Below, piece by piece: positions 2,548 through 62,700 of a stretch of 64,000 nt of DNA; the first letter of the stretch is position 1, and every line of letters starts with the position of its first letter. The position numbers and the translations under genes were made by a program. This stretch comes from Xestospongia muta (lineage: Eukaryota > Porifera > Demospongiae > Haplosclerida > Petrosiidae), in assembly GCA_963693285.1 (NCBI GenBank), contig OY848920.1, positions 7,019,135 through 7,083,134 on the forward strand, written 5' to 3'. Under the pieces are notes generated by a model. That model was not told the DNA's origin and made no database searches. It saw only the letters and a list, made by a program, of their open reading frames with translations.

Positions 2548-5500
2548 CTACTTTAGGACTGGCACAAACTTAAGTCTGTCTTTAATAACTTGATAACTGT
2601 CTAACTTCTCACAGTACTCTTCATGTTGTTCAGATAAGTATAGTTTCTGTATTGTAGTATTTTCAACGAGTGCAATACAAATAGTCTTGATATCATCATT
2701 GTTCAATGAAGTATTGTCGAGCTGTAGTTTTGTTAATGATTTAGTTGTATTTATTAGTTCAGCTATTGTACTGGTACTGGCTGAAGTGATCTGAGGATTA
2801 TAACTGATGTCCAACAAAGTCAGTGTTTGGTTTTTAGTAACACCTTCGCAGATATATCGGACACCATTATCAGTGATGTTACAATTGGTGAGTTCTAGTT
2901 TATCCAATGTCTTATTAATACTTAACATGGTAGATAAGTTACTGGTATCTTCATCTGTGATAGTAACATTAGTCAACGATAACACTTCAAGAGTAGTATT
3001 GGTAAAGAGAGCATCACTGATTTGTTTGATACCACCAGTAAGTGAAGAGTAGCGAAGAACTAGTCCTATCATTGTTTTATTAGTAGTTTGTAGCTCTGCT
3101 GATAATGTTGATATACATATACTGTCCAATGGAGTGCTGTGTATATCAAGTCCCCTCACTGCACACTTACTGAGATTACTAATAATTACAAGAGCACTTT
3201 CAGGAGATGATGATCTGAGATTAATACGCCATCTACTTCCTTTGGTTTGTTGTTCTGTTATTAATCTGCTAACAACCTCTTCACATTGTTCAATAGTTGG
3301 TGAGATAAGCCGAACAGTCTCTATATCATCTCTCCACTCAACTCTTTCAGTATATCCTGTTATAAACAGAGTTAGTATGTAGATATAGTGTACACATATA
3401 ATATATAGTGTTACAAACTGTACTATGCAAAACATTATAAATTATGTTCTAATAAACAAATTACAGGGATTACCTCCTAATTTGGTATCATCATGAGATA
3501 AATCAGATTTAGCTAGTCGTAGTTCTGTAAAATTTATAGGAAATATCCCATAGACTCCATTCAGAGTCCCTTCACACCATCCTTTATCAATCTAGGAAAA
3601 TATATAATATAATTAGAGATGATCTTTAAATAATATGTTGACATAATGAATGGATAGACAAAAAAGGATGTCTCCATACCTTAATGACATCTTTGATAAC
3701 ATCTCCAACATTTAGAGTTAATTGCTGAGGAAGTACTTTGGTGTAAGAATGTTTGACAACAGCTTCTGTATAGAACACTACTACATCATGATAATGTAAC
3801 TTTATGAAACATCAAAACATAACATACCATAACCTGACTCTTTATCATCAGTTGAACCCTTTGCCTCATCTCTCAACTCATGTACTGAAGACTCTATAAT
3901 AAGTAATGACAATATAGTTTGTATAATATATGTAGTCAGGAGTGGATGAAGAAGAGAAGGAGTATGGAACATTTATACACTAACATGTACTATCTGTTAT
4001 GACAAGTCCTTATCTTATAATACCATATAAGGTATATGCTTTCATAGGCAAAATGGTGGCTAACCTTTGTGGTTGTACCATTTTATCATGTGGTATTAAA
4101 TGCTACAAGGAGATGATCAGGACTAGGCTAACAAAGAAAAGGTGAGTGAGACTAACTAAGAACCAAATCTGTAAAGTTGTTTAGAAGTCATTGACTTGTC
4201 TGTATCTGTCGCCAAAATAGTTTTTTTGTAATTAACAAAGTGTGATTACATGGTTTAAGCTCAATTATATAATATAGTGTATAAATGCTAAATTTAGTAA
4301 CAATGTCATATATAGAGAAGTAACAATTATCTACTAATATCAGTTACCTTTCAAGCTTTGCTTTAACTCCTCAATCTGTTTGTTTCTCTCTCTTAGCTGT
4401 AATGTCAATGTTGTTATTATTTCTTGTAGTGTCTCTATCTCTCCTTGTCTCTCAACAGACACTGACAATAACTCCTTCTCAAAGACTATGGAATATCTCA
4501 TTAATACAATAGTGTGTTTTGTACATTATTAACATATCACCTTCTTTTTCCTTGATGGTATTTGTTAACTGTTCTATCTGTAAAATCTTTGCTCTGTTCA
4601 TTTTAGTACTTGCTTCTAACAATTGTTTCAACTCAGACTCTATAAACAAGAGAGAACAAGTGTGTACATAGTACTTGTTGTTAAGAGCTTACCTTTAGTT
4701 TCTGTAACACTAGACATTTCTAGTATTTTGTTTTTAAGTGTGTCTAGTTCCTCTTCAAGAGCTATAAAAAGAGAAGCATTTATTGTTAATATAAAATGTT
4801 AAAAGTATCACAAAATTCATCATTGCATCAGATTTCTTACCTTCCTTCATTGCTAACAATGATGTCAAGTCATTAATCTCTCTGTCTTTCTGTTCTAACA
4901 TTTGTTTCACTAAATTTAATTCCTCTTCAGTAGCTACAGTATATGAGATCAATACAATGATACAAGCTGTGTTAGATGAATAAGACATTACTACCTTTCT
5001 TTCCTTGGTACATTTCTTCAATCTCCCTTTCTTTCATTAGTTTTTCATCTATACAAAATATTTGAGAGTAGTAAAAATAATTACACATAATATTTATGTA
5101 CAATTATTCAACAAAGAGCTAGCACAACAGTATTCAAATAGAGCTAATGAAATAATTTTCTACCTCTAGGACAAAAGAGATCTTATTATTATTGATACAC
5201 TAGTGTACTAAATGGTGTATATTCCTTTATAGACTCAATCTACTGATGGACGTATGAACTCTTAATAGTTTATTGTTCAATGTATGACTATATTAAATGC
5301 ACTGCTATACAGTGTTGGTCATATTGTACCACAAAGTTAATTTACATGATAGATGTGTTACATTTACATGATACAATGTAAAAATTGATTTGTTGATTTA
5401 ACCAATGTATTGTTGTACGGGTTGCAGGTAGCAAACTAATATGATGTGAAAACAGACATAACACTGTTTTTATTACTAATAAATATAATATTAATAATAT

Positions 5501-7392
5501 TAGTAATCAAAACAGTGTTATGGTTACTTTCACACCATATTAAGTTTGCTACATACAACCTGTATAACAATATATTAGTTAAATCAACAAATCAATTTTT
5601 ACAGTGTAGATGTGTTACATCAATTAAGTGTTTGTTGATTGTGTTACAAATTGATGAAGTCAGGTCTCTAAGAGTGTTAGGATATCAAATGTTGTACCAA
5701 AAATACAAGAATAAATTTGATAAAATGTGTATTGAAACATTCAAGACATAGTCTCTTGTGCTTTTTTTTCGTAATGTACTTGACTAACACCATATCTATT
5801 ACTTCAAGGTTGGACTGACCTTCACTGTTTCTAAGCTGTGATTTCAAATCATCCATTTCTGTTGTCATCTCTCTAATAATTATGTCCCTTGACTCCAGTT
5901 TGTTTTTGAGATCCTTAATCTCCTATATACAATACATGTAGTAACTGTTGTCTAATACTACTCATCTCTTACCTTATCTCTCTGATGTTTATCATAAATG
6001 ATGTGATAGCCAAATGTTAATTTTATCACTCCATTCTCTTTCAGTATGTTAAGATTCCTCTCTGCTGTTGTTAGTAAGAAGTCCATCAAACTTAGAGGAG
6101 CATAGCAGGTAACAATGATGGAGTTACCATCATTAACTACTCTAACTTGGACAGACTTAGCCATGTCTCCAAATGCTTTTGATAGCAAATGTTTGATATC
6201 TCTAAGTGTGTATTTGTCAGCCTCCCACTCCAGTACAAACTCAATAGTCTCACAAGTGAGATGATGAGAAAATGAAGCTATCTTGAAGTTCTGTTTAAGG
6301 CATATATCGGTTTTGATCTTCTCACAAAATGTATCAACAGTTGTCTTGAATTCTTCAATGTGTTGTTTAGCTGCTGTGATCTTGTAGTGATTGACAATAG
6401 CTTCCAAACAGCAGACATTAATAATGGTACATTTATCTTGTACAAGTTCCATAACATCATTAAATGATTCAGTTGTAGCCAGTTGGGATCTTAGGTCTCG
6501 AAAACATGTCCGAAGATACATTTTGAGATCTTCTAGTGAAGGAATACCAGCCTTAATAAGAGGTGACATTGTCATCATAAGATTTCCAAAGGTCACTTCC
6601 ATCTGATCAAAATCATACTGATAAGTGCACTGAAGATTGACTCGGGAAGGAAATGTTTTCTCTATGAAAGTGATAATGGAAGATTAATATTATATAAATT
6701 ATTTACCATATTCCTTGAGTATATCTTTAGCAATATGGACTGTTCCTTCAGATTTCAACAAGACACTTACGAAGACTTTTAAAATGTTTGGGTCTCTAGA
6801 CACTGTAGTACACAGTGCTCTCAATGGACCTTCTCCTAGTACACTTCCCAATCTATTCACTTCATCTAATGTTTCCTTAGAGATCACTTTCTCTTCATAT
6901 AACATCTGAACAATCTCCACAGGAAGAATGAGAGGTGAGAGTCTGTCAGTGTGTTGCTGTAGCATTTGACAGGCAGGAGTAAATGACTCTTCTGTTGTAA
7001 GAAGTAAATTATGTAAACCAATAGTGAATTTCTTACTAAATTCCATTATTTTTTCAGTAACAAAATTTTCTCCTATTTTGTGAAGGGCATCAGCTAATGA
7101 GTCCCATGTAGGACCTCCACACTCAGTCACCTTGTCAGCTTTACTCAACCACAGAGTTAAACATTCCTGAAGACAACTCTCCACATCATCTCTATGGTTT
7201 GCTTTAATGGTTGACAGAGTAGGTTGTAATAGACCCAGTTGTAGACCAAGAGGAGACCAGCGATGGCTTGGGAAAAGACCTTTCTTCAAAGCTTCAATAA
7301 TATCTTTCAAATTAGCAACATCTAAAATGAAAATGACATTTATAAATGAGAAAAGGAACTTAAGTTTTTAACTCACTCAGACTTGATGCCAT
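2548..7392 (-). CDS. Gene A: Death / CARD-like / coiled-coil / SH3 / LRR protein
   Basis: Multi-exon gene of about 970 residues, apparently intact. Exon 1 (7377-7392) encodes MASSL. Exon 2 (7037-7321, 285 nt) is a Death domain (HRWSPLGLQLGLLQPTL, then ECLTLWLSKADKVTE). Exon 3 (6707-6991, 285 nt) looks like a second Death-fold domain, most like CARD. Exon 4 (5973-6661, 689 nt) is a conserved 230-residue region I cannot name. Exon 5 (5820-5922) and five exons between about 5050 and 4340 encode coiled coil, followed by a Ser-rich linker near 3895. An SH3 domain is split over 3680-3765 (LTLNVGDVIKDVIK) and 3474-3591 (GWCEGTLNGVYGIFPINF), resembling CIN85/CD2AP SH3s. The last exon (2548-3356, 809 nt) holds ribonuclease-inhibitor-type LRRs (for example CNITDNGVRYICEG). 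All joins checked keep phase. No P-loop was seen, so this is not a standard NLR. I infer a cytosolic signalling scaffold or sensor recruiting Death-fold partners and proline-rich ligands. Relative to genes B and C one linker exon is lost, with a stub near 4285. Confidence 0.85.
5343..5620. mobile_element. Fold-back (inverted-repeat) element in gene A intron
   Basis: Bases about 5374-5481 are the imperfect inverted copy of about 5492-5605, sharing for example AAAATTGATTTGTTGATT against its complement, with an approximately 10 nt centre. The direct repeat AGATGTGTTACAT lies outside both arms (near 5351 and 5607) and may be a target duplication. It sits in the intron after coiled-coil exon 5. 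I saw no counterpart in gene B, which suggests a foldback/MITE insertion after the duplication. No coding capacity. Confidence 0.7.
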
Positions 7393-11095: not shown

Positions 11096-14000
11096 CTACC
11101 TAAAGACAGGTTGAAACTTAAGTCTGTCTTTAATAACTTGATAACTGTTGAATTTCTTACAATCCTCTTCATGTTGCTTGGACAAATATAATATCTGTAT
11201 TGTAATATTTTCAACAAGTGCAGTACAAATAGTATTGATATCATTATCGTTCAGTGAAGTATCATCGAGACGTAGTTCTGTTAATGATTTAGTTGTATTG
11301 ATTAGTTCAGCTATTGCACTGGTACTGGCTGAAGTGATCTGAGGATTATAGCCGATGTTCAACTCAGTCAGTGTTTGGTTTTTAGCGAGGCCTTCACAGA
11401 TATATCGGACACCATTATCAGTGATGTTACAGTTGGATAGCTCTAATGTTTCCAATGTCTTATTAATACTTAACATGGTAGATAAGTTACTGGTATCTTC
11501 ATCTGTGGTAATAATATTAATTAACACCAACACCTTAAGAGTAGTATTGATAATGAGAGCATCACTGATTTGTTTGATACCACCAGTAAGTGAAGAGTAG
11601 CGAAGAATTAGGTTTATCATTGTTTTATTTGTAGTTTGTAGCTCTGCTGATAATGTTGACATACATATATTGTCCAATGGAGTGCTGTGTATATCAAGTG
11701 TCCTCACTGCACACTTACTGAGATTACTAATAATTACAAGAGCACTTTCAGGAGATGATGATCTGAGATTAATACGCCATCTACCTCTTTCGGTTTGTTG
11801 TTTTTTTATTAATTTGCTGACAACGTCTTCACATTGTTCAATAGTTGGTGAGATAAGCCAAACAGTCTCTATATCATCTCTCCACTCAACTCTTCCAGCA
11901 TGTCCTGTTATAAACAGAGTTAGTATGTAGATAAAGTGTATTCATATAATATATAGTGTTACAAACTGTACTATGCAAAACATTACAAGTTAAGTTCTAA
12001 TGAACAAATTACAGGGATTACCTCCTAATTTGGGGTCATCATGAGATAATTCTGATTTATCTAGTTGTAGTTCTGTAAAATTTGAAGGGAACTGCCCATA
12101 GACTCCATTCAAAGTCCCCTCACACCATCCTTCTTGAATCTATGAAAATACATAATATAATTAGAGATGATCTTTAAATAATAATTATGTTGACATAATG
12201 AATGGATGGACAAAAAGGATATGTCCATACCTTAATGACATCTTTGATAACATCTCCAACATTTATAGTTAAATCCTGAGGATCTACTTTGCTGAAAGAA
12301 TGTTTGACAATGGCTTCTGTATAGACCACTAATACATCATTATAATGTAACTTTATGAAACATCAAAACATAACATACCATAACCTGACTCTTTATCATC
12401 AGTTGAACCCTTTGTCTCATCTCTCAACTCATGTACTGAAGACTCTACAATAAGTAATGACAATATAGTTTGTATAATATATGTAGTCAGGAGTGGATGA
12501 AGAAGAGAAGGAGTGTTCAACATTTATACACTAACATGTATTATCTGTTATGACAAGCCTTATCTTATAATACCTTATTAGGTATATGCTTTCATAGGCA
12601 AAGTGGTAGCTAACTTTTGTGGTTGTACAATTTTATCATGTGGTATTAAATGCTACAAAGAGATGATCAGGACTAGGCTAACAAAGAAAAGGTGAGTGAG
12701 ACTTATTAAGAACCAAATCTGTAAAGTTGTTTAGAAGTCATTGACTTGTTTGTATCTGTCTCCAAAGTAGTTTATTTGTAAATAACAACATGTGATTACA
12801 TGGTTTAAGCTCAAGTACATGCTAAAATAACATTTCCATATATGGACAATGGACACATCCTAAGACATAGATATGGTACTATGACACTCACCATTGATAG
12901 ATAGTGTGGACCGTTCTTGGCTAGACTTATGAAGTCCTTCATCAGTTAATGGTTTCTGAGGCTTTTGTATAAATGCTACATTTTGGTAACAATGTCATAT
13001 AATGAGAAGTAACAATTATCTACTAATATCAGTTACCTCTTAAGCTTTGCTTTAACTCCTCAATTTGTTTGTCTCTCTCTCTTAGCTGTAATGTCAATGT
13101 TGTTATTATTTCTTGTAGTGTCTCTATCTCTCCTTGTCTCTCAACAGACACTGACAATAACTCCTTCTCAGTAGCTATATACAAAGGACATAAAACAAAT
13201 GATCATTATATCTTATATCTACCTTCTTTTGTCTTCATCAGATTTTGTATTTCCTTTTCTTTTATTTGTCTATTTTCTATAAATACAAAACTAGTAAAGA
13301 TACATTATCTATTAAATATAGTACTTATCATAGATTGGGAAAGTTTCATTGTTTAAAAAGTTCACACATAAATGATGTACAAAAATTAAACACACTAATA
13401 TTATTACTCATTGAAATATTTACGATATATAGTGTACAAGTTACATCATGGTTTTGAGAGACTAAAGTGTAGAATATAGATATGACTATGATGGTTCTTT
13501 CAAGATATCTTAAAGTTACAGATGATCAAAAGGTTCTATCATCCTTCATACAGCCACTGGCGATTGCTCTGGCAAATGAAGAAGTTAGGAATGCCACTAA
13601 ATGCTTGTCAGGAAAATGTGGACCTTATCAGCCGTACAGTTCAGACATATGAGCTAAAATTGGCAAATACGCTAATCCTTATAGTGTTACTGTAGCCTTG
13701 CATTTCTCTTTTTTAGAATTATATAGATGATAGCCTTGAACAAAATAATCTATGCCATACTCTCCCATAGTGCTCAATGTTGGAAAATTTAGGGGTTAAT
13801 AAATTTTTGTACATGCCTCTTGTGTCCGAATTTTGTTAACATATTAATTTTTACATGAAAATTTTGTAACATGAAAGTTTCTCAATCTACGTTATAAAAG
13901 TGACCATATAGTATAGCCTAAATGATATGTCCCTATTATAGTACATGTACAGTACATTAGTGTTACCTTTATGTTCTCTGATAATAGACTCATTTTCTAT

Positions 14001-15567
14001 TATCGTTCTTCTACTGATGGCTTGTTGTAGTTCCAGTTGACTTCTTAACTCTGTGTTCTCATCTACAACAGCTTTAATTTCCTATATACAATACATGACA
14101 ATGTAGTAACTGTTGTCTAATACTACTCATCTCTTACCTTATCTCTCTGACGTGTGTCAAAAATGGTGTGATAGCCCATGGTAAATTTGGTCACTCCCAT
14201 CTTTTTCAGCAGGTCAAGATTCTTTTTTGCTGCCATTAGTAGAGCATCCATCATGTATTCTGGAGCATAGCAGGTAACAATAATGGAGTTGCCTTCGTTT
14301 ATGGTTCTAACTTGGACAGAGTTTGCCATATCTTCAAATGCTTTTGATAACAAATCTTTTATGTGACTAAGTGTGTGTTCATCTGTTTTCCATTCTAAAA
14401 CAAACTCGATAGTGTCACAAGTGAGATGATGAGAAGACAAAGTAGTTTTAAAATTTTGTTTAAGGCATATATCAGCTCTGACATCTGCACAAAAGCTATC
14501 GACTGTTGTCTTGAATTTTGTGATGTGTGGTTTAGCCTCTGTAATATCATAGTGATCAACAATAGCTTCCAAACAGCAGACATTAATAATAGTACATTTA
14601 TCTTGTACAAGATCCATCACGTCATCAAATGATTCAGCTGTAGCCAGTTGGGGTCTTAGCTCTCTAAAACATCTCCGAAGATATACTTTGAGGTCTTCTA
14701 GTGAAGGAATACCAGCCTTAATAAGAGGTGACATTGTGATCATAAGATTTCCAAAGGTCACTTTCATTTGATCAAAATTGTATTGATATGTTCGATGAAT
14801 ACTGACTTTGGAAGGAAATTTTTGTTCTATAAATAGAATTATATATTTTTAGAATAAATCATATTAAAGTTCTGCTTACCATAATCCTTGAGTATGTCTT
14901 TAGCAATCACAACTGTTTGCTCAGATTTCAGTAAGACACTGGCAAAAACGTTTAATTTGTTAGGGTCCTCAGACACAGTAGTACACAGTGATCTTAATGG
15001 ACCTTCTCCTAGCACACCTCCCGATCTATTGACTTCATCTAATGTCTCCTTAGAGATCACTCTCTCTGTATATAACATGTTAACAATCTCCACAGGAAGA
15101 GTAAGTGGTGACAACCTGTCAGTGTGTTTCTGTAACATTTGACAAGCTGGAATAGATGAGTATTCTGTTGAAAAGATAACAAAAATGTACATCATGAAAT
15201 TGTAATTCCTCACTAAATTCAGTTATTTTTTCAGCAGCAAAGTTTTCTCCTATTTTGTGAAGGGCATCAGCTAATGAGCCCCATGTAGGACCTCCACTCT
15301 CAGTGACTTTGTCAGCTTTACTCAACCACAGAGTTAAACATTCCTGAAGACAGTTCTCTGGATCATCTCTATACTTGGCTCTAATGTCTGACAGAGTAGG
15401 TTGTAATAGACCCAGTTGTAGACCAAGAGGAGACCAGCGATGGCTTGGGAAAAGACCTTTTTTTAAAGCTTCAATTATATCTTTCAAATTTTCAACATCT
15501 AAAATGAAAAGACATTTATAAATGAGAAAAGGAACTTAAGTTTTAACTCACTCAGACTTGATGCCAT
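11096..15567 (-). CDS. Gene B: Death / CARD-like / coiled-coil / SH3 / LRR protein
   Basis: Tandem paralogue of gene A, apparently intact. Exon 1 (15552-15567) encodes MASSL. The Death exon is 15214-15498 (285 nt), the CARD-like exon 14880-15164 (285 nt) and the conserved unnamed exon 14138-14826 (689 nt). A coiled-coil exon at 13967-14081 begins EIKAVVDENTELRSQLELQQ. Further coiled-coil exons lie near 13275-13220 and 13170-13035. A linker exon near 12985-12890 encodes AFIQKPQKPLTDEG. The DDKESGY linker is near 12450. The SH3 pair is near 12325-12230 (LTINVGDVIKDVIK) and 12140-12025 (EGWCEGTLNGVYGQFPSNF). The last exon, 11096-11904 (809 nt), is LRR. Its coiled-coil exon 5 and linker match gene C better than adjacent gene A, so this gene mixes features of both. 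Its role is inferred as for gene A. The main uncertainty is small coiled-coil exons I may have missed. Confidence 0.83.
13430..13960 (+). other. Possible transposon debris in gene B intron
   Basis: The intron after the exon-5 coiled coil carries sequence I did not find in unit 1. Its plus strand has a short frame beginning MTMMVLSRYLKVTDDQK, then a stop, then AKIGKYANPYS. The last piece is loosely like the N-terminal helix-turn-helix region of transposase-like proteins. This is weak evidence. It is listed because the stretch otherwise lacks explanation. Confidence 0.25.
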
Positions 15568-37412: not shown

Positions 37413-37517
37413 TTGTCACTGGAAGTGTTCGGTGGAGAGATGATGACAATATTGTTGAACTCACTAGACCAAGTGTAGAAGAAAGTGAAGATGATTAAAT
37501 TAATGAAAGAACAACAA
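37413..37517 (+). pseudogene. Truncated start of an LRR exon
   Basis: Matches the first approximately 105 nt of the gene C LRR exon (GSVRWRDDDNIVELT) and the longer relic at 46998. It is cut off at the segmental-duplication junction after GAACAACAA, and already carries the frame-breaking GATGATTAAA. Confidence 0.7.
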
Positions 37518-45105: not shown

Positions 45106-45765
45106 TCATCCAAATAAGTCTGGTCCTTCACCTTCCAGGACTAATATAAGTAGGGTAGCAGATTGAGATTTGTACTGAATATTAACATCAGCACAGCCGA
45201 TTGGTTGAAGTTGCTCCCCTGAAAATGTCTTAAGTACTGTGTTAGTCCTTTTCAACTCTTGTTCAGTGAACAATTTATTCCAGGTTAATGATGAGAGAAT
45301 GGAGACAAAAGCTCCAGTGTCTAATTCCATAAGCACAGGTTTCCCTTCAATATAAACAGTCAATTGGATAGTATTATTGTTCTCACCTAAATGGTTTGAC
45401 AAGAATTCAGCAGGCTCCTTCTCTTTCTCAGAGAGTTGCCTCATGGGCTGAGGCTTGTGTACGGAAGCCTCAGACGGACATTCCTATTCTTGTTTCCAAT
45501 TTCTTCCGCCCACCTTATATTCTAATTAAAGATACAATTGATGGTCTCTAGCTTTTCTTGGAGTGGTCTTGTCTAGTTTTTGGGCGGTTCTACAAACTCT
45601 TTGGATGTGGCCAACTTTACCACACCTGATACACTTACCCTGCTTGAACCTGCATTTGTCCGGTTGGTGTCCTAGCTCCTCTCCCGCAAAGGTGGCAGGC
45701 ATGATTGTAATTCGATGTATGGCTTGTGGCATTGCAGTACCCTGTACTCCCTATTAATTAATTCA
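45106..45765 (-). pseudogene. Ty3/gypsy-type gag-protease fragment, copy 2
   Basis: Duplicate of 35531-36190. The CCHC knuckle is unchanged. The protease segment differs at several residues, including DTGAF in place of DTGAS just after the catalytic Asp. Confidence 0.75.
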
Positions 45766-46055: not shown

Positions 46056-46997
46056 ATTACTATATCCTATGAATTAAAAGAAGAAATTACTGCAAATAAT
46101 ATAATTGTTATTGCAATAACACAATCACACTATAATTGATGATCACATCTTGTACAAGTAAAATGGATAACTCTTGCTCCTTTCTGGGTAGGTGAAGTTT
46201 CTAGTACTCTGTTTGTCTCTGTGTCTCTGTTATTGAGCAATGCACTTTGAACTGCTATAACTTAATCATAGAGTTTTAATTCACAAAACTTGTCAGGAAA
46301 ATAGCAAAATTCAGCACAACAAATAATTTATCTAACTATATAGGCAACAAATGACAACAAAACTTCAAAGTTGAAAAACTCTTACATGAGTATAGATAGA
46401 AGAGTTGACTGCTCCAATTATTTACTGTGTGTACAAATACAATTACTGTATCTACAAATTTGGTGGGAATTTTGTAAAAACACTTTGGTTTGAAGTTATG
46501 TCAAGTTTTACTCACCTTGACAGCTTAATTAAATATATTCATTGTATGAATGAGATCAATTAATAAACATAAAAATCTGACATTTATAGTAACATATAAT
46601 AAATAAAGGTTTCTGGTTTGAGTAAATTTTATGTAAGTGAGTATTATGTTATACATACTAATGTAACAAGTTAACACTTGAACAATGTTGTATAATGTAA
46701 TCTAATCATGTGTAGCCTTAATTCTTATATACAGCCCTGATTTTTATAATTATGTATCATCATATGTAACCTTTTTGGGGTGCTGTAAATAGTCCAAACT
46801 TAATTCCAAATACAGTTCTTTGACCTACACTGAGTGGGTGAACATAATTTACTTTGCGTTCATAACAACCTTCTCCAGCAATGTTGGCTTTTTAGAAGTT
46901 TGAGAGGTAAAGAGCTCAGTCTACACAGACTATCTGTCCTCTCCATTTCTTTCATTAAATCAGTGAGACACTAAAGAGGTGCAATCTTTGTCACTGG

Positions 46998-47782
46998 AAG
47001 TGTTCGGTGGAGAGATGATGACAATATTGTTGAACTCACTAGACCAAGTGTAGTAGAAAGTGAAGATGATTAAATTAATGAAAGAACAACAAACAGGAAA
47101 ACAATGGAATATTGATCTCTCTCCATCATCTCCTGAAAGTATTGCAGTTATTATAAACAATCTTAATAAGTGTACAGTGAGGAGACTTAATATATTGAAC
47201 ACTTCATTGGACAGTAAGTGTATATCGATATTATCGGAGATACTAAAAACTAATAAAACAATAAAGTCACTAATGCTGTCTGTACTCTTCTTCACTTACT
47301 GGCGGTATCAAACAAATAAGTGATAGTCTCTTTAATAATAAAACACTTTAACAGTTATTGTTGTATAATGTTACTGGTATCACAGATGAAGATATGCTTC
47401 ACTTATCTACTATGTAAGCAACTAATACAACTTTAAAAGAACTATGTCTCTCCAACTGTAACATCATTGATAATGGAGTCTCTGATATATCAGTCAAGGA
47501 CTTACTAAAAACCAAACATTGACTAAATTGAACATTGAAGATAATTATCAGATCACATTAGTTAGTACAAGTACAATAGCAGATCTAATACAAACTACTA
47601 CATCACTGACAAGAGTATATCTCTACAATACTTCACTGAACAATGATGATATCAAGACAATATGTACATCACTTACTAAAAATACTACAATAAGGGAACT
47701 ACACTTATCAAGAGAACATTACAAGTATTATAAGAAGTTAGACAGTTATCAAGTTATTAAAAACAGACTTAAGTTCTGGTAG
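46998..47782 (+). pseudogene. LRR-exon pseudogene related to gene C
   Basis: Aligns with the gene C LRR exon almost end to end (WNIDLSPSSPESIAVIINNL, NKTIKSLMLS, STSTIADLIQTTTSL, KLDSYQVIKNRLKFW, stop). It is broken by GATGATTAAA near 47070, a shift near 47285 (SVLFFTYWRYQ) and stops near 47410 and 47510. The splice acceptor seen before the gene C exon (ACAG|GAAACACTGG) has become CTTTGTCACTGG. Sequence after the stop, up to about 47960, also matches that after gene C. Confidence 0.85.
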
Positions 47783-50345: not shown

Positions 50346-53300
50346 ATGGCAGCAAATCAAAGTGAACTGAGTGAGTTAAAGTAATATAAACTTTTATTGT
50401 ATTCATTTTAAGTTGCTTCTCTTCTTTACATTGTTATTATAGATGTTAGTAATTTGAAAGATATTATTAATGCTTTGAAACAAGGCTATTTCCCAAGTCA
50501 TCGCTGGTCTTCTCTTGGTCTACAACTGGGTCTATTACAACCTACTCTGTTAAGTATTAGAAGCAAGTACCGAGATGACCCAGAGAGCTGTCTTCAGGAG
50601 TGTTTAACTCAGTGGTTGAGTAAAGCTGACAAGGTGACTGAGAGTGGAGGTCCTACATGGGACACATTAGCTGATGCTCTCAAGATAATGGAAGAAGTTT
50701 TCGCTGCTGAACAAATAAAAGAATTTAGTGAGAACTTGTAATCTTCATTATAGAATGCATTGTTTTTTTACCTTTTAACAGATGAGCTATCTACTCCAGT
50801 TTGTCAAATGCTACAGAAACACTCTGATAGGATCTCACCACTTATTCTTCCTGTGGAGATTGTTCAGATGTTATATACAGAGAGAGTGATCTCTAATGAG
50901 ACATTAGATGAAGTCAATAGATTGGGAGGTGTACTAGGAGATGGTCCATTGAGAGCATTATGTACTACAGTGTATGAAGATCCAAGCAAACTAAAACTGT
51001 TCGCTAGTGTCTTATTAAAGTCTGAACAAACAATACCTATTGCTAAAGATATACTCAAGGAATATGGTAAATACTGCATATATATCTGCAAGTTATAATG
51101 CTTTATTTATAGATCAAACTTTTCCCTCCGAAGTCAATCTCCAACCTACTTTTCAACATGATTTTGATCAAATAAAAATGAAATTTGGTAAACTTTTTTA
51201 CAATATTGCTCCTCTTATTGCTAAGGGCATCCCTTCACTACAAGACCTTAAAACATATCTTCGTAGATGTTTCCGAGATCTGAGACCTCAGTTAGCAATA
51301 GCTGAATCACTTGATGATGTTATTGATCTTGTACAAGATAAATGTACTATTATTAATGTTTGCTGTTTGGAGGAAATTGTTGATCAATATGACATTACAG
51401 AAGCTAAAGTACATATCACAAACTACAACACTGCAGTTGATGAATTTTGTGAAAAGATCAAAGCTGATGTATGTTGTAATCAAAGCTTCATAATCTCTTC
51501 ATCATCTCATCAACTTACCTGTGAGACTATTGTGTTTGTTCTGGAGTGGAAGACAGATGAACATACTCTCTTTGACATTAGAGGGTTGTTGTCAAAAGCG
51601 TTCAAAGGTATGGCAAAGAAAGTACAAGTTAAAGCAGTAAATGAAGGCAACTCCATCATTGTTACCTGCTATGCTCCACAAAGTTTAATTGATCTTTTAT
51701 TGATGACAGCAAAGGAAAACCTTGAGTTGTTGAAGCAGTTGGGTGTTATCAAGTTAACAATAGGCTACCACACTATTTATGACAAACGTCAAAGAGACAA
51801 GGTAAGAGATGAGTAGTATTAGACAACAGTTACTACATGTGTTGTTTATTGATATATAGGAGGTTAGACCTATTGTAGAAGAGAATAGAAAGGAGTTGAG
51901 AAGTAGACTGGAACTACGACAAACCATCAGTAAAAAGATGGCTTTACAAATATCATCTGTTGTCCAACAAAGTGAAGGTATTAGTCCATGTAGTCAATAA
52001 TCACTGTTTATTTAATAGTTGTCTATTATATGGTATATCTGATTTAAAATTCAATGTTTCTATATAGAAAGAAAAGAAATGAAAGAAAAAACAATCAAAG
52101 ATTTGACATCACTTTTGAAATGGAAGGAAGGTATTATTAATACAATAGCTATCACTAACATAGTCTGTGTTACTGATTTGTCAATACTTAATTATAGTTA
52201 ATAATTATTTAGTTATTAAGGAAGAGTTACTGTCAGTGTCTGTAGAGAGACAAAAAGAGTTAGAGACACTGCAGGAAGTAATAACATCATTGATGTTACA
52301 ATTAAGAGAGAGAGACGAACAGTTTGAGATATTAAGGCAGAACTTAAAAGGTAACTGGTACTAGTCACTTCTCATTATATGACATTGTTACTAGATCTAG
52401 CATTCATACCAAAGGCTCATAAACCAGTAACTGATCAAGGACTTGAGAAGACCCAAACACTATCCAGTCAGGAAGAGACATCACTTATCACTGAAACTAC
52501 AGGTAGTAACAAAAGACATTGTCCATTGTATACCACAATTATATGTATGTATTGAGATACCGAAGATGATAATAAGGCTGAGCCATAATTTTGACCACAC
52601 CTATAATGAATTTCATATATTACACTGTATAGTATCACACTCATAAATGGGCAGAGTCAATTAAACATATTGATAAACTATACAAATGTAGTGATTAGAC
52701 AACATTATCACATTAGACTAACTAATTCAGATCTACTAATATAATAATACTAAACCACAAAATTGTATTAAATTTAATTTTCTAAACTACTAATATATTT
52801 ATTTTTATTAAGTTGCTCCACCCACTGAGGTAATAAACAGGTTGTAATATCCTATAACCAACTTCCTCTTTATCCTAAACTAGGGCGTGGCTATCCCAAT
52901 ATAGAGGAAATACATCATATAGAGTTTACTAAAGATCATGATATGTTTGGATTTTATATTCATCAAGAAACTGAGTCTACTATGCAAGTTTCAAGAATAA
53001 CAAAGGATGGAGCTGCAGACAGAGATGAACAACTTAGAGTAAGGGACATATATCTATAATTTGTAGAGTTTATAATATTATTATTATAGGTTGGCGATGT
53101 ACTATTAGAAATTAATGGTTTCTCAACTAAGGGTATGTTACTTACTGATGCTGTCACTCTCATTAAACAAGGAGGAAACAAAATTGCTCTAACTGTTAGA
53201 AGATCATCCGAAACCATTAGTAAGTTATATAAGTCATTGTTAGAATGCTGAACAAAAGTTATTAATATACCTCTTATAGAGTGGGAGGGGCTAAGACTAA

Positions 53301-55534
53301 ATTGTTTATTCAGGAGATCTATTTAAAATTATGCTAAGTTTAGCTTAGGTAGTAATAATAATGATATATCTCTTGGTAGTTACCAATAATAATGTTATTA
53401 GCAGTATTGGTAATAAGATAGTGTGTTAATAGTGAGCATAGGTGTTCAATAGAAGACAATGTTGACTGAACATTGAACATAAAGTGTTATACAGATAGAA
53501 GATAGAAGTAACATTGATATTAACAAGTATTAAAGTATTGTACAATGTTTTCACACTTAACCATGCACATGTGATGACATACTTGAAAAGGCTGGATCAC
53601 TTTTACCACATGAATAATTACTGGTTTGTTATATTTGTAGTGAACATCAGTGCTTAGTAACAGTACTATTTTAACAATAGAGTGATTATTTGAAGTATTT
53701 GGTATGATTTTACTCACCAATGTACTATTATTACCCATCCTGGTTATCACTGATATCAATTAATTATATTAATATAATCCAACCACAAAAATGAATAGTA
53801 ATTATGATTATTACTTTTTAAGATGTTATTATAGTATATATAAATTTGAATAGAGTCTCCAGTATCAGATGATGTATTAAAGGATTCTAATGATGATAAA
53901 GAGTCAAACAAAAGAGGTATGTACTAGTAACCAGTTATCATTAATAAATATAAACAAAATTATAATTAAGGAAATTATCTCAGTTATAATTAATGTTAAT
54001 GTCACAGACATACACTGAACTTTGTCAGAAACTATAAAACATGGGATCAAGCTAGCTAGAACCTTAAAAGAAGAAATATTCATGCCCATCATAGCAATGC
54101 TAGTGATAGTGGTTCATTGGTTGTCACATTGGTGGCTTAATTGTATTTGCTTTTCTCGTAATAGAGTAAAATGATGTAAGTAGATACATAATAACACATA
54201 ATTTAAAGCAATGATTAGATTACTAAGTATGTATTAGCAACAGAAACTATTTATGTTACAATGATAACACACTATTATAAAGAGTGGTTTTCCAAGCCAC
54301 ACCCAATTAAATGTCATTGATGCGTATAACATGTCAACTGTTGAAATTCAATTTGCTATGACCAGTACATGATACTGTATACACTTAATACTACACTTTA
54401 TAGTATCATCATAATATTTAATGAAGGAGTTATAAAGTAGTTATCTCAAGGTATAGTCAATGTCCCTAATACTAGTAGTAGTAGTAGCTTGGTCTTCCTT
54501 TAGACAATAATCAGTACTTTTAAATAGTTCTTTTATTGATTTAATTTAAAGGTTTCAAATTTAACGGTAAACCATGCCTCCTGTAAATTGTTGCCATAGT
54601 AACCATAGGCAGTAAATGGTAATGGCTTCTTTTCTTCTTCAGTGTGTTATCTGTGTATTGTAGTGTGTTATAGTATATATTACTATGTATATACTATACT
54701 ATATACTAACTCTGTTTTATAACAGGAAACACTGGAAGTGTTCAGTGGAGAGATGATGACAATTATGTTTTCAATAGTGTTAGACTCACTCGTCCAAGTG
54801 AAGTAGAAAGTGAAGATGTTATAAGTAAATTAATAAAGGAACAACAAACAGGAAAAGAATGGAGTATTCGTCTCGATTCATCATCACCTGAAAGTACTGC
54901 AGTTATTATAAACAATCTCAATAAGTGTACAGTGAGGAGTCTTGATATATGGTACACTTCAATGGACAGTAAGTGTGTATCGATACTATCTGAGACACTA
55001 AAAGCTAATAAAACAATAAAGAGACTAGAGCTGCAGTCCTCTTCACTTACTGGTGTTATCAAACAAGTCAGTGATAGTCTCTTAAATAATAAAATACTTG
55101 AAGAGTTATGGTTGTCCTATGTTACTGGTATCACAGATGAAGATATGACTCACTTATCTGCTACGTTAGCAACTAATACAACGTTAAAAGTACTACGTCT
55201 CTACAACAGTAACATCACTAATAATGGAATTCGATATATTTGTGAAGGACTTACTAAAAACCAAACATTGACTACGTTGGACATTGGACATAATCATCAG
55301 ATCACTTCAGTTAGTACCAGTACAATAGCAGATCTAATACAAACAACTACATCACTGGTAAGACTAGATCTCGACTATACTTCACTGAACAATGATGATA
55401 TCAAGACAATATGCACATCACTTACTAAAAATACTACAATAAGGGAACTACACTTATCAAGAGAACATGAAGAGTATTGCAAAAAGTTAGACAGTTATCA
55501 AGTTATTAAAGACAGACTTAAGTTCATGTATTAG
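50346..55534 (+). CDS. Gene C: Death / CARD-like / coiled-coil / PDZ / LRR protein
   Basis: Twelve exons: 50346-50370, 50443-50727, 50782-51066, 51113-51801, 51860-51977, 52068-52130, 52213-52350, 52395-52502, 52884-53038, 53090-53219, 53854-53916 and 54726-55534. They sum to 2868 nt, exactly 956 codons, with phases agreeing (955 residues). Approximate residues: Death 9-103 (HRWSSLGLQLGLLQPTL), CARD-like 104-198, conserved unnamed region 199-428, coiled coil 429-534 (ERQKELETLQEVI), linker to 570, PDZ 571-665 (carboxylate loop MFGFYI, then RVGDVLLEINGFSTKG), linker to 686, RI-type LRR 687-955. The Death, CARD-like, third and LRR exons have exactly the same lengths as in genes A and B. PDZ occupies two exons between phase-1 introns, and there is no SH3. 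No P-loop. A cytosolic adaptor or sensor role is inferred, with PDZ tethering to C-terminal tails. Confidence 0.88.
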
Positions 55535-58199: not shown

Positions 58200-59717
58200 G
58201 TACGTATCTATAAATAGTATACCCTGTGCGTATTGTCTATTAAGACTATCTATTACTTGCAAGGTCACGCCCATTTATTTGTAAGTGTAATCCTTTTTAT
58301 TGAGGACAATGAGGACCATGCCACATCCATTCTGAGGAGAGCGGTTTTTGGTGCATTAACAAGGAAGTTTGCACAGGCATAGTAATTACATGACTTCAGC
58401 TGGACAAACTTTAAATCAGCTAATTTGAATGTGTGTGAAACACTTAGATTGGCAAAGTTATAATTACTCTGTCCTTATTTATTCAAGTTAAGCTTTATAA
58501 ATACCTAGTGTATACTACTTATAGTGCGGTAAACTGGACTCTCATAACCCAATCTACAATGACTGTATTTTTCAAAATGAAAGATATTATTCATTATGTT
58601 TTAATGATGTAATATGATACATTAGTGTAATCACACTAGGAAGGCATCACTATTCTATTAGTATCATATTTTATATTATCAACAATGAATATAAGAAATA
58701 ATGAACCAGTTGTCATATATAATTGATTATGACTATAGTATATTATAAATATACCACTCCTTATTGTCTAGCTTTGTACCTAGACACTTCACAAAATAGA
58801 AGCCTTACTAAACCCTAATATCGTGGAGGCAGGGATAGTTTAACAGGACATTTTTCACTGCACCTGAGTTATTATAGCATATAGTAGTGTTATACACATA
58901 GTTTCCAAACATTGCTTCGTATCGTCACATAGAGAACTCGATCTTTCAACTGAGCATCCAGCACGAGCAATGTTTGACATGTTCAAAAGTCAGGTGACTG
59001 AAGATATCTTCTCTTTCTTAGAAAAAAAATACACTCAGAATGTCAACCATAAAACCACTAGGGGCCTGTTGAATTTTTAGTCTACATGACTATTTTAAAG
59101 ATCATGAGTCAATAATCAAGAATGGTTTAAAGCTTCTGGAATAGTGAATTCTCTTTCAACAGCCTAATAATTACTTGCTTTTAATTATAAATTAAATTAT
59201 ATGTTATGAAATATCTTTTAAGAAAATTTCCTTTATTATAAACAATAAAATTGTTTAAATGGTATTATAAACATCATTAAAATTATTTAATTGGCAAGGA
59301 ATAGAGAAAAATAAACATTTGTCAAACAATCAATAAAATGTAACCTTATTGAAGGCAGGATTATATGAAATTCATTGATACTACTTACAGGACAAGCAAA
59401 ATGCTATATTAACAGTGCAGAATTGTTTCTTGTCTATTACGTTGATTATTAGAAATCTATAATTCTTTTAAAAACAGGGTGTTTACAATTTTGCAGAGAC
59501 TACTATATGCTACCATTATAAATTATAAAATCACTACCTCCCTTGAGTATACATTTTTAATAGTGTAAATAGTCAGAGGTTAATTTTAGTAATTGTCTCT
59601 ATGCTGTCTCTCAGCAATGTTTGTACTCCCTCTAACAGTTAGTGTAAGATTGTCTTGAAATATTAATGGATAATATTCCAATTCTCATTTTTAATAATGT
59701 TTCTCATTCTTTTATAG
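58200..59717 (+). other. Inferred 5' UTR intron of the beta-helix receptor gene
   Basis: Bounded by GTACGT and TTTTATAG. No frame with a recognised domain inside; AT-rich. If the intron is real, the in-frame ATG at 59666 lies within it and is not used. Confidence 0.5.
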
Positions 59718-59719
59718 TT

Positions 59720-62700
59720 ATGAAGTTACTTGTGGTCCAAGTTGCTATAGTTTTGTGCCTACTTTGTTGTGGTATAAACTCCTCTACACTTTGTGTGGTA
59801 AGTAATAGCACCTCATTTCCAGATAGCTCTGGAATAGCTTGTGATATTACTACAAATAATATCACCTTTGCCTTCATTCTTTTTAACAATCATTCTGATA
59901 AATATTCTACTATTTTTGTGGAAGGTCAGCATTACTTGCTGTCATCATTGTCTAACACATTTCGTGGTGTTACAAATTTGCTAATTATCGGAGAAAATTC
60001 TGCTGAAATTGCTTGTAATTTAAGGGCAGGATTAGCTTTTATAGAGTCAGCAAACATTGTCATTAAAAACATCCAATTTTTTGGCTGTGGAGCTGTGCAA
60101 AATGGTACAAGTAAAGTCAATGATGTGTTTCATTTATTATCAGCCTCTCTTTATTTTCTCAAATGTGTCAATATTACTTTGGACTCAGTAACAATTTCAG
60201 ATAGTGATGGATTTGGTGTTCAAATTTACGCAACTGTTGGTTTTAATATTATTAAAAATAGTCATTTTACAAACAATGGAAATTCTCAACATTATGGTGG
60301 TGGTGTTCATATTGAATTCCCCTACTGTATTCCCACCAGTGAATATACCTGTGTATCCAACTATTCTGACTACTACAAAATGAATGCAGTTTATAATATC
60401 ATTGACTGCACATTCGAAGATAATAATGCCTTAACCCCAAATGCTAGCATCACCACTTACATTAAACCTTACAATGAGTCTCATATTTCCTTTGGTAGAG
60501 GAGGAGGGTTATCATTTGTCCTCAAGGGTGCAGCCAAAAATAACAAAATTGTCTTGGATAATTGTACATTTTCTAATAATAGTGCTCTTTTTGGAGGAGG
60601 TCTGTATATTGATTTGTTAGATGAAACACAACATAATGTAGTTACTGTGAACAATAGCTCATTCGATATGAACCAAGCAATACATGTTGGGGGTGGTGCA
60701 AAAGTTAACTTCCTCTCCTTTTCCAATTTAAGTTATCAATTCAATAATGTTTGTTTCAGTCACTGTAACTTTAACAACAACTCTGCAATAGAAATTGCTG
60801 GAGGACTATCATTGCTGGCTACTAAAGAACAACGCTTTGTTTTTCCAACAAATGCCTTTTCAATTGACTCAACACAATTTTCTGCTAACAAAGCACAGTA
60901 TGGTGCAGCATTAGATCTTTCAAGTTGGCCTTCATTGACTGGAATAACCTTGCACCTTGAACTATCTAACTGCATCTTCACAAGCAATATAATTACAACA
61001 AAATTAAATAGAGTTGTTGGATCTGGAACAGTTTACCTTAGTGATATCACTGTAAATATACTTGATTCTATTACTTTCAAGCATAACAATGGGTCTGCTG
61101 TTGTGGTAAGTGGAAGTGTTGTTTCTTTCAAAGACAACTGCTCAGCTAATTTTACCAAAAACAATGGTATATCCGGTGGTGCAATGTCACTGCTTGCTCA
61201 ATCATACATTGTTGTTGGTAAACATACTACATTTTTATTTATACACAATGCAGCAACTACATTTGGTGGAGCTATTTTTGCCTTTTTCGCAGGACGTACC
61301 TTTCTTTCATCACGAGATTGCTTTTTGAGATACTTTGATGTGAACGTTGGACCATATCAGTGGTTGACACATTTTTTTTTTCATAACAACACTGCAAACA
61401 ATCAACCCAACTCTATCTATGCTACATCTCTTCTTGCTTGTGCCTGGGGTATGGACAGTGGTGTTCCAGACATATTGGATATCCAGAAAAATGTATTTTG
61501 TTGGAATTCTACAGATCGTTGGATTTATGAAACTGATAACTTGACACTTGATGAATGTCACAATCAAATTGAAACTGCCCCAACAAATTTTAGTAGTGAA
61601 GTTATTAATGTGAGTGTGGTACCAGGTATGTCAACTCACTTCAGTCTAACAGCATTTGATGCTCAAAATGATACTATAAAGAATAATCTTTATTTTCTAT
61701 CTTCTCAATCTGATGACATTATAATAGAAGGCAGCAATAACTACATTTCAACAACTACCATAGAACTAAATAAAGCCAGCAAAGACGTTATGAATGGAAC
61801 AGTGATACTCCAAACCCTCTCACCTCATATTATTCAATCTATCTTGAATGTTACATTTAAAGACTGCTCTCCTGGTTTGGAATTTCAGGATAAAACATGC
61901 AAATGTCCTGATAACTCCAAAGCTTTTCATAGCTTTACTAAATGCTATAGAGACTCTAGAGTTGAGCTACAACGAGGATATTGGATTGGTAATTATAAGA
62001 CTGAAAATGACTCAGATATCATAGTTGTTGCTCAATGTTATTACTGCAAAACTACAGCTTCTACTACTGAGTTAAATGGTGGCTTTCTTCCAGTTGAATA
62101 CTTGTCATGTAATGATAACAGAGAAGGATTGCTTTGCAGTGACTGCAAAAATGGTACTGCTCCTGCTATTAATACAATTCTCTTTCAGTGTGTAGAATGT
62201 AAGGGTGTGGATGCTGGTGGGATTTTTTACATTATAAGTAGCTTTCTATTCACATTAATAATATTTGGTATCATAATCTACACTAATTTTGCATTGACAT
62301 CTGGTAAACTTGCTGCAGTTACACTATTTGCTCAGATGTTTTCCGTTATCCTTGGTGACATTGACCAATACACAGCTGATATTGTACAATCTTATAAAGT
62401 TGCTAACGGACTTCAGTTTTTTAGGTTTATATATGGTCTGTTTAATCTTGATTTCTTTCTTGTTTTTCCACCAAGATGTCTGGGACCAAACTTGAACTCA
62501 GCTCAAGTATTAGCTCTTCTGTACATTCCTGCTACATTTCCTCTGTTTCTTGTATTGGCTACTTACATTGTGTTCAAATTAGAAACTAAGTGGGCTTGTT
62601 GTACATTAATATCTGAGCGCACATTTCGACGTATTCTATTAATACGAAATTGCATTGACAGAGAGCAACATCAAGAAAATATGGACAAAAAAGTTTCATG

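What the first reader, a model, noticed from the sequence alone, without database searches (positions are those of the whole stretch)
50346..55534. SH3-to-PDZ exchange in a paralogue through phase-1 exon cassettes
Gene C keeps Death, CARD-like, exon-4 and LRR exons of exactly 285, 285, 689 and 809 nt, as in genes A and B, but has a two-exon PDZ (155 + 130 nt) instead of a two-exon SH3 (86 + 118 nt). Both cassettes run from phase 1 to phase 1, so they can be gained or lost without breaking frame. They are not in the same slot: PDZ precedes the short DDKES linker exon and SH3 follows it. This suggests independent cassette gain or loss in one family, giving different partner specificities to a common Death/LRR chassis.
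Basis: partly seen in the sequence, partly recalled or inferred. Interest (0 to 1): 0.85.

Follow-up and report, generated by a model that had tools for sequence, protein, structure and literature searches.

The report
Captured PDZ exons in immune-like genes
In a large family of Death-domain/leucine-rich-repeat genes, one lineage acquired a small two-exon piece copied from an unrelated scaffold gene of the MAGI type, and that piece has since been passed between family members, lost in at least one, and rapidly altered, which looks like the building of new recognition parts.

Summary
Family architectures with SH3 or PDZ are already published for the sponge Amphimedon (PMC8195603). It is not a swap in one slot. 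Of 150 exon-4 loci, 40 carry SH3, 13 PDZ, none both. SH3 genes form one lineage; PDZ is scattered on the exon-4 tree but nearly one group on the adjoining exon. The closest copy of gene C (exon 4 98% identical) lost PDZ by a deletion with TGAA microhomology. New here: the PDZ is a DNA-level, intron-bearing copy of the last PDZ of a MAGI-type gene, placed at a 5' splice site between 9-bp direct repeats, and recombined onto several exon-4 lineages. PDZ exon 1 (dN/dS 1.83) and the exposed LRR face (3.51) diversify, while exon 4 is conserved (0.25). Most likely an immune-type receptor family recruiting recognition modules; function is inferred.

The parts
50346..50370 (+). gene C exon 1 (start codon)
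   Evidence: phase 0 to 1
50443..50727 (+). gene C Death exon, 285 nt
   Evidence: Pfam PF00531 25.5 bits
50782..51066 (+). gene C CARD-like exon, 285 nt
   Evidence: no Pfam match
51113..51801 (+). gene C exon 4, 689 nt: helical bundle plus probable TRADD-N-like alpha/beta domain
   Evidence: TRADD-N only below the Pfam cut-off
51860..52350 (+). coiled-coil exons cc5-cc7 (51860-51977, 52068-52130, 52213-52350); block that is unusually uniform between paralogues
52401..52502 (+). coiled-coil exon cc8; its 5' splice site is the PDZ insertion point
52501..52509 (+). left 9-bp direct repeat AGGTAGTAA
52510..53346 (+). 837-bp segment carrying the PDZ cassette
52795..53213 (+). MAGI-homologous stretch inside the segment (DNA ahead of an earlier MAGI PDZ, then the last MAGI PDZ with its intron)
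   Evidence: against L086; end coordinates
52884..53038 (+). PDZ exon 1, 155 nt, phase 1 to 0
   Evidence: Pfam PF00595 51.7 bits for the joined pair
53090..53219 (+). PDZ exon 2, 130 nt, phase 0 to 1
53347..53355 (+). right 9-bp direct repeat AGGTAGTAA
53854..53916 (+). gene C linker exon (NDDKES), 63 nt, 1 to 1
54726..55534 (+). gene C LRR exon, 809 nt with stop
   Evidence: LRR_6
11096..15567 (-). gene B, SH3-type member (SH3 exons 12316-12231 and 12139-12022; linker 12444-12379; LRR 11904-11096)
2548..7392 (-). gene A, SH3-type member (SH3 exons 3765-3680 and 3591-3474; linker 3893-3828; LRR 3356-2548)

Best explanation
Gene C belongs to a large family of Death-like / TRADD-N-like / coiled-coil / LRR proteins, probably immune-type receptors of a sponge (inferred). 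Its introns are phase 1 except the one after exon 4 and those inside the PDZ and SH3 pairs, so a 1-1 cassette can be added without a frame shift. SHOWN by sequence: (1) among the genes compared, SH3 is confined to one sub-lineage. (2) The PDZ cassette descends from a DNA-level copy of part of a MAGI-type gene: DNA ahead of an earlier PDZ joined to the last PDZ with its phase-0 intron and phase-1 donor. (3) The segment sits at the 5' splice site of cc8, and in several genes both its ends carry the 9 bp that empty relatives carry once. (4) PDZ-bearing cc8 regions of one kind stand behind several diverged exon-4 lineages; the divergence profile places the exchange between exon 4 and cc8, where introns are as uniform as exons. 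(5) The near-twin of gene C lost PDZ later by a microhomology deletion. INFERRED: insertion (not deletion in the empties) as the direction; a new phase-1 acceptor made from former MAGI coding DNA; Death and TRADD-N-like modules signal under purifying selection while LRR and PDZ bind variable ligands, so that cassette capture plus recombination supplies new recognition specificities.
For: Models and phases. Census: (40 SH3, 13 PDZ, 97 neither, 0 both, of 150). Trees on 38 of those 150 loci (LRR: 30): SH3 one clade on CARD-like 97/89 and LRR 100/100 (exon 4: 76/79); PDZ needs 7 changes on exon 4 (at least 6 forced by starred branches) and 5 on CARD-like (at least 4), but 2 on cc8 plus 100 bp. 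AU test: exon 4 rejects a PDZ clade p=5.6e-7, CARD-like p=1.4e-4, cc8 does not p=0.208. Mean distances within non-SH3 genes: CARD-like/exon-4 intron 0.347, exon 4 0.208, ex4-cc5 intron 0.086, cc5-cc6 intron 0.078, cc6-cc7 intron 0.072, cc8 0.217; the cc5-cc6 and cc6-cc7 introns differ by 0.48-0.52 from the few SH3 genes that have them. Donor: best PDZ outside the family among those examined (53% and 68% aa), same intron position and phase-1 donor; five PDZ domains in the donor stretch; MAGI1 and MAGI2 are the best PDB chains matched by a single PDZ; DNA match over 343 columns including the intron, E 3e-28; upstream 100 bp maps to the same place in 8 of 9 PDZ genes (gene C score 67, best of 200 shuffles 41). 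Insertion site. Loss. Selection.
Against: Direction of insertion rests on parsimony (empties are commoner and include the SH3 lineage). Only 5 of 9 PDZ genes keep the right 9-bp repeat; L053, L058, L059 and L087 do not, and L064 and L087 have altered left copies. Only 3 of 10 PDZ-free genes compared (L052, L056, L060) read from the site into the same intron as the PDZ genes; the near-twin is a secondary loss and the other 6 have other intron sequence there. No terminal inverted repeats were seen and no transposase was sought. The MAGI 5' exon boundary (phase 2) is not the cassette boundary. DLG4 chains with several PDZ domains rank above MAGI in whole-chain score (five, one), and no WW domain was found in the donor stretch. 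The upstream MAGI match was not significant in a first BLAST test, and L064 failed in the second (wrong anchor). The ex4-cc5 intron is also fairly similar to SH3 genes (0.154), so some constraint or wider exchange is possible there. The LRR tree is weak: PDZ needs 6 changes but starred branches force only 1, and 38 of 500 shuffles do as well; the cc5-cc7 tree has no resolution. TRADD-N is below the Pfam cut-off and the genome search with that model found nothing. dN/dS pairs are not independent and recombine. No expression or binding data.
Confidence: 0.7

Rival explanations
1. Simple gain and loss: PDZ was gained independently several times, or gained once and lost many times, on a chassis inherited as a unit, without recombination between paralogues.
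For: At least one clear loss exists (C4:7473k). Empty sites are common.
Against: Synonymous divergence differs five-fold or more between exons: exon 4 dS 0.665 against 0.087 and 0.131 for the PDZ exons of the same 11 genes. Exon-4 and cc8 trees disagree on the PDZ group. The 9 PDZ genes compared share the sequence that follows cc8 and, where the right side survives, one insertion point, which argues against repeated gains.
Confidence: 0.15
2. Alternative-splicing remnant: an ancestral gene had both SH3 and PDZ, and descendants each lost one.
For: Slots are compatible: PDZ upstream, SH3 downstream of the linker.
Against: 0 of 150 loci hold both; no convincing relic of SH3 in the gene C introns tested nor of PDZ in the A and B introns tested; L052, L056 and L060 have an uninterrupted site.
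Confidence: 0.05
3. Retroposition: cassettes entered through reverse-transcribed messages, as Kaur et al. 2021 propose in part for the DEDD2-clade relatives.
For: Published proposal for a sister clade (PMC8195603, passage seen).
Against: The PDZ cassette keeps an internal intron at the donor's place and phase (two separate exons in 13 of 13 genes), so a processed message is not the source of this cassette.
Confidence: 0.03
4. Pack-MULE-like transposon capture (a special case of the best explanation): a DNA transposon copied a MAGI fragment and delivered it with a 9-bp target duplication.
For: 9-bp direct repeats at the insertion point, intron-bearing gene fragment. That Mutator-type elements make 9-bp duplications is recalled, not tested. 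Kaur et al. mention fusions with Mutator-like elements.
Against: No terminal inverted repeats at gene C's segment ends; no transposase was searched for.
Confidence: 0.2

Closest known systems
Amphimedon queenslandica NCOA6-clade TRADD-N proteins (Kaur, Iyer, Burroughs and Aravind, eLife 2021, PMC8195603; abstract and passages seen)
   Same: Large sponge expansion (357 proteins): 1-3 Death-like domains, TRADD-N, then a variable C-terminus, commonly ankyrin repeats or SH3 plus LRR, also PDZ.
   Different: The passages seen do not describe exon phases, the donor of a cassette, insertion footprints, recombination between paralogues, or dN/dS by module; they propose retroposition in part for a sister clade. 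Membership of this window's genes rests on architecture, as the TRADD-N match is below threshold here.
MAGI scaffold proteins (last PDZ)
   Same: Closest PDZ examined in the genome; same internal intron, phase-1 donor, upstream DNA recognisable.
   Different: The cassette has one PDZ only; its acceptor lies in what reads as open MAGI coding sequence; the position taken as alpha-B1 (by recalled comparison) is His in 5 and Leu in 6 of 11 PDZ genes, His in the MAGI-type gene.
Plant NLR integrated domains (integrated decoys; Ellis 2016, PMC4759852, abstract seen)
   Same: An LRR immune-type receptor family with a foreign host domain fused between signalling and LRR parts.
   Different: No NB-ARC or NACHT match; animal (inferred); no effector known.
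Class 1-1 exon shuffling of metazoan modules (recalled)
   Same: Symmetrical phase-1 modules inserted in phase-1 introns.
   Different: The classic cases are mostly extracellular (recalled); here a PDZ with a split exon pair and a traceable donor.

Membership tests
Sponge NCOA6-clade TRADD-N family | N-terminal Death-like domain | tested here: met
   Pfam Death 25.5 bits, cut-off 22.6
Sponge NCOA6-clade TRADD-N family | second Death-like domain (CARD-like exon) | tested here: inconclusive
   no Pfam match; fold not predicted
Sponge NCOA6-clade TRADD-N family | TRADD-N domain by profile | tested here: inconclusive
   PF13820 in 5 of 22 members, best E 0.007 (E<=1) and 6 of 58, best E 0.0012 (E<=0.1); gene C 12.8 bits against a cut-off of 22.5; genome search with the model 0 hits, and none in its 14 control genomes
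Sponge NCOA6-clade TRADD-N family | RRM/ferredoxin-like fold with conserved small-Ser turn between strands 2 and 3 | tested here: inconclusive
   three-row model (pLDDT 47.5) shows b-a-b-b-a-b at 136-221 with Ser180 at the turn and ferredoxin-fold matches of probability 1.00 but E about 4e-3, none at E<=0.001; the 58-row model (pLDDT 71) is confident only for a helical bundle at 12-122, no match at E<=0.001; Ser180 invariant in A3
Sponge NCOA6-clade TRADD-N family | large lineage-specific expansion with variable C-terminus | tested here: met
   152 exon-4 matches, 150 listed, 150 of 655 candidates scored; SH3, PDZ or neither
Sponge NCOA6-clade TRADD-N family | organism is Amphimedon | not tested
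   genome unnamed; 158 Mb, window GC 32.5%; sponge origin inferred from architecture
MAGI-derived PDZ cassette | closest relative is a MAGI PDZ | tested here: met
   DLG4 multi-PDZ chains rank higher by whole-chain score; a 36-residue piece at C4:7358776 was not examined
MAGI-derived PDZ cassette | donor gene has MAGI architecture (guanylate kinase, WW, PDZ array) | tested here: inconclusive
   five PDZ domains in L086 by Pfam, some halves just below cut-off, no WW match; the guanylate kinase region lies outside the fetched stretch
MAGI-derived PDZ cassette | shared intron position and phase | tested here: met
   ..RLR|VGD.. phase 0 and phase-1 donor in both; 5' boundary differs
Class 1-1 shuffled module | both borders phase 1 | tested here: met
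   gene models; PDZ1 acceptor and PDZ2 donor at the predicted place in 13 of 13 genes; SH3a acceptor 5 of 5; SH3b donor 3 of 5, the other 2 cut by the end of the stretch
NLR receptors | NACHT or NB-ARC domain | tested here: not met
   no such Pfam match in the five gene C modules scanned; the coiled-coil exons were not scanned
Pack-MULE insertion | terminal inverted repeats | tested here: not met
   none seen at gene C's segment ends; ends may have decayed
Retrocopy | introns absent from the copied part | tested here: not met
   PDZ in two exons with splice sites in 13 of 13 PDZ genes

The most novel reading that the evidence does not exclude
The PDZ cassette is an animal integrated decoy: an immune-type Death/LRR receptor family copied the last PDZ of a junction scaffold of a kind that pathogens target, keeps changing its peptide groove under positive selection, and shuffles it among signalling backbones, so that effectors with PDZ-binding tails trip the receptor.
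Probability: 0.15. Interest if true: 0.88.

Novelty: new variant of a known kind. Interest (0 to 1): 0.62.

Why it matters
The published survey of this sponge expansion reports that up to half of its 357 proteins have unique architectures and offers retroposition as a partial source for a sister clade. Here one cassette can be followed step by step: donor gene, insertion site, new splice acceptor, spread by recombination, and loss. That makes the question of how an invertebrate immune-type repertoire builds new receptors testable in one genome. The contrast between conserved signalling exons and diversifying LRR and PDZ faces gives concrete residues to test, and the choice of a MAGI PDZ raises an integrated-decoy model for animals.

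Tried and rejected
Searched introns of A, B and C for relics of the missing cassette: none convincing (best cross hits E 1 or worse). Tried to prove TRADD-N by Pfam on 22 and 58 members, by a genome search with PF13820, and by PDB profile and fold search: only sub-threshold or fold-class support. Looked for terminal inverted repeats: none at gene C's ends (for L054 the script wrongly took an internal AGGTAGTAA as the right end, so only gene C was properly tested). First BLAST shuffle test of the upstream MAGI match was not significant; its query had lost the last 17 nt. Repeated by local alignment with 200 shuffles per gene; shuffles reaching the score: 0 in five genes, 1 in two, 4 in L087, 197 in L064 (false anchor, counted as a miss). 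The nine genes are related, so these are not independent tests. An SH3 donor was not found: PDB nearest are CD2AP and SH3KBP1 SH3 domains; weaker genome hits (33-44%) run on without the cassette's intron. SH3a-like exons at 60-65% on C3, C1 and C7 were not followed, so SH3 may recur outside the set studied. Cc8 type alone does not predict PDZ: L088 has cc8 88% like gene C but no PDZ. In one search the table used 33 of 34 listed PDZ pieces (one 36% hit dropped) and 44 of 106 listed SH3 pieces (second-exon pieces of 70% or more); pieces were given to the nearest upstream exon 4 within 9 kb, one SH3 lying 7.7 kb away; 5 PDZ and 4 SH3 pieces had no listed exon 4 upstream. Trees used 38 of 150 loci. 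The SH3-type LRR motifs were picked by a loose pattern, so that figure is rough.
Full report
WHAT IS THERE. Gene C runs from 50346 to 55534 on the + strand; genes B (15567-11096) and A (7392-2548) lie on the - strand. All three have Death and CARD-like exons of 285 nt, an exon 4 of 689 nt (phase 1 to 0) and a last LRR exon of 809 nt with its stop. C has PDZ exons of 155 and 130 nt, A and B SH3 exons of 86 and 118 nt; each pair is phase 1 to 0 and 0 to 1. Pfam supports Death, PDZ and LRR; the CARD-like exon has no match and exon 4 only a weak TRADD-N match.

WHAT FAMILY. The window lies in an unnamed 158-Mb genome of 28 contigs. Exon 4 has 152 matches there, with only 150 of 655 candidates scored, so the family is larger. 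A published analysis describes 357 Amphimedon proteins with Death-like domains, a TRADD-N domain of the NCOA6 clade and a variable C-terminus, often ankyrin repeats or SH3 plus LRR, sometimes PDZ (PMC8195603, abstract and passages seen). The architecture agrees. That exon 4 holds TRADD-N is likely but not proven: PF13820 matches 5 of 22 and 6 of 58 members, best E 0.007 and 0.0012, gene C itself below the cut-off, and a genome search with that model found nothing. A low-confidence model (pLDDT 47.5) shows a helical half and then b-a-b-b-a-b with an invariant Ser at the strand 2-3 turn and resembles ferredoxin-like folds, none at E<=0.001; a better model (pLDDT 71) is confident only for the helical half. 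Sponge origin is inferred.

CENSUS. By coordinates, of 150 exon-4 loci 40 have SH3 downstream, 13 PDZ, 97 neither of these, and none both. A fourteenth PDZ gene (L087, with its LRR frame broken) was found later. In 13 PDZ genes splice sites stand at the predicted places for the PDZ1 acceptor (13 of 13), PDZ1 donor (8, the other 5 one codon earlier) and both PDZ2 borders (13 of 13); the scan moved by whole codons. Where the A/B-type linker can be seen, PDZ lies before it (6 genes: L053, L054, L055, L058, L059, L064; not detected in the other 3 in hand, including C) and SH3 after it (5 of 5). So the two cassettes use different slots and there was no one-for-one exchange.

EXONS WITH DIFFERENT HISTORIES. 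Trees were built on 38 of the 150 loci (11 PDZ, 12 SH3, 15 neither; LRR on 30). SH3 genes are one clade on the CARD-like exon (97/89) and LRR (100/100) and one side of a weaker branch on exon 4 (76/79). The PDZ label needs 7 changes on exon 4, at least 6 forced by starred branches, and 5 on the CARD-like exon, at least 4 forced; on the LRR it needs 6 but only 1 is forced and 38 of 500 shuffles do as well, so the LRR says little. On cc8 with 100 bp of intron it needs only 2, and 0 of 500 shuffles do as well; on cc5-cc7 it needs 7 with almost no resolved branches. Holding PDZ genes together is rejected by exon 4 (p 5.6e-7) and the CARD-like exon (p 1.4e-4), not by cc8 (p 0.208). Mean distances within non-SH3 genes fall from 0.347 (intron before exon 4) and 0.208 (exon 4) to 0.07-0.11 for exons and introns from the ex4-cc5 intron to the cc7-cc8 intron, then rise to 0.217 at cc8. 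The introns there are as similar as the exons, yet the cc5-cc6 and cc6-cc7 introns differ by 0.48-0.52 from the 3 or 4 SH3 genes that have them, so they are not held by function; the ex4-cc5 intron, at 0.154 to SH3 genes, is less clear. Synonymous divergence is 0.665 in exon 4 against 0.087 and 0.131 in the PDZ exons of the same 11 genes. The simplest reading is repeated recombination or gene conversion between paralogues through the short block between exon 4 and cc8. Gene C4:10053k (L088) shows the extreme: exon 4 46%, cc8 88%, LRR 83% identical to gene C.

WHERE THE PDZ CAME FROM. Of the matches to the cassette in this genome the best that proved to lie outside the family is on C15 (a 36-residue piece at C4:7358776 was not examined). 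The fetched stretch L086 encodes five PDZ domains by Pfam, some halves just under the cut-off, and no WW match. The last PDZ matches the cassette at 53% and 68%. MAGI1 and MAGI2 chains are the best PDB chains matched by one PDZ, for it and for the cassette; DLG4 chains with several PDZ domains rank above them. Both split at ..RLR|VGD.. in phase 0 and end in a phase-1 donor. At the DNA level the cassette matches over 343 columns including the intron (E 3e-28). The 100 bp before the homology also map, in order, to one place ahead of an earlier PDZ, open in the PDZ frame, in 8 of 9 PDZ genes; gene C scores 67 against a maximum of 41 in 200 shuffles, L087 is weaker (4 of 200 as high), L064 failed because of a wrong anchor. 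An earlier BLAST-based control was not significant. So the cassette descends from a genomic fragment of a MAGI-type gene with an internal deletion, and its phase-1 acceptor lies in what is probably former coding DNA. A processed message cannot have been the source, because the intron is kept.

HOW IT ENTERED AND LEFT. Three empty relatives (L052, L056, L060) read cc8|GTAGTAA straight into the linker intron. PDZ genes read cc8|GTAGTAA, then about 0.85 to 1 kb with the PDZ exons, then AGGTAGTAA again and, in L054, L064 and in part gene C, L055 and L049's upstream gene, the same intron. Both copies of the repeat are exact in L054, L055, L049's upstream gene and gene C; L064 has an exact right copy and a one-base-different left copy, making 5 of 9 with the right copy; L053, L058, L059 and L087 lack it. 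In gene C the repeats are at 52501-52509 and 53347-53355. Of the other PDZ-free genes compared, six (L050, L051, L057, L061, L062, L088) have different intron sequence at the site. This is what an insertion with target duplication leaves, though deletion between repeats in the empties is not excluded. No terminal inverted repeats were seen. The near-twin of gene C at C4:7473k (exon 4 98%) has no PDZ but keeps the first part of the segment, joined at TGAA to sequence beyond it: a secondary loss.

SELECTION. Among 11 PDZ genes PDZ exon 1 has dN 0.158, dS 0.087 (dN greater in 295 of 300 codon bootstraps), PDZ exon 2 a ratio of 0.81 (80 of 300), exon 4 0.25 (0 of 300); the CARD-like exon in 26 non-SH3 genes has 0.34; the whole LRR exon in 20 has 0.88 (42 of 300). 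In those 20 LRR exons, 28 codons at exposed positions of the beta-strand motifs, chosen from the motif after the per-codon profile had been seen and not from a structure, have dN/dS 3.51 (300 of 300), the rest 0.61; in 10 SH3-type genes 1.34 (219 of 300) and 0.66, with motifs picked by a loose pattern. The alpha-B1 position of the PDZ, which sets ligand class (recalled), is His in 5 and Leu in 6 of 11 genes. This is how recognition surfaces of immune receptors behave; pairs are not independent and recombination is present, so the figures are indicative.

HOW IT PROBABLY WORKS. Death-like and exon-4 modules are the conserved signalling part; the LRR, and PDZ where present, are variable binding parts; the coiled coil joins them. 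The PDZ could bind host or foreign C-terminal tails. Since human MAGI proteins are targets of several viral proteins (PMC4810129, passages seen), and plant receptors carry integrated domains (PMC4759852, abstract seen), a decoy role is possible but untested.

NOVELTY. The family and its SH3 and PDZ architectures are published. The donor, insertion site, recombination bridge and selection contrast were not found in searches of the open-licence library, seen as listings apart from PMC8195603; subscription papers were not searched.

Noticed in passing
window 46993-47776 (+) and 37418-37492 (+): LRR exon copies like gene C's without the other family exons found nearby; the first has two in-frame stops and frame changes, so probably decayed copies.
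   Followed up: partly
window 59648-63703 (+): An open frame of 1351 codons with hydrophobic stretches in its second half (by eye) and no Pfam match at E<=0.01.
   Followed up: partly
window 45106-45483 (-): Retroelement-like aspartic protease fragment (gag-asp_proteas 22.6 bits, cut-off 28.2), between the family members. Described only.
   Followed up: no
L053 (C4:9774200-9780600): A PDZ gene with an internal duplication of about 1 kb; the repeated region holds a copy of the empty-site intron, so one gene holds both a PDZ segment and copies of the empty site.
   Followed up: partly
C4:9.15-10.42 Mb: Many LRR exons 75-85% identical to gene C's with no exon 4 upstream among the 150 listed; one (L088) has an exon 4 only 46% identical.
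   Followed up: partly
L051, L055, L058, L059, upstream of the CARD-like exon: The first Death exon was not found or is very different from gene C's in the fetched stretch (L055: 29% identity) although the CARD-like exon is 87-89% identical, so the N-terminal Death exon may be exchanged too.
   Followed up: no
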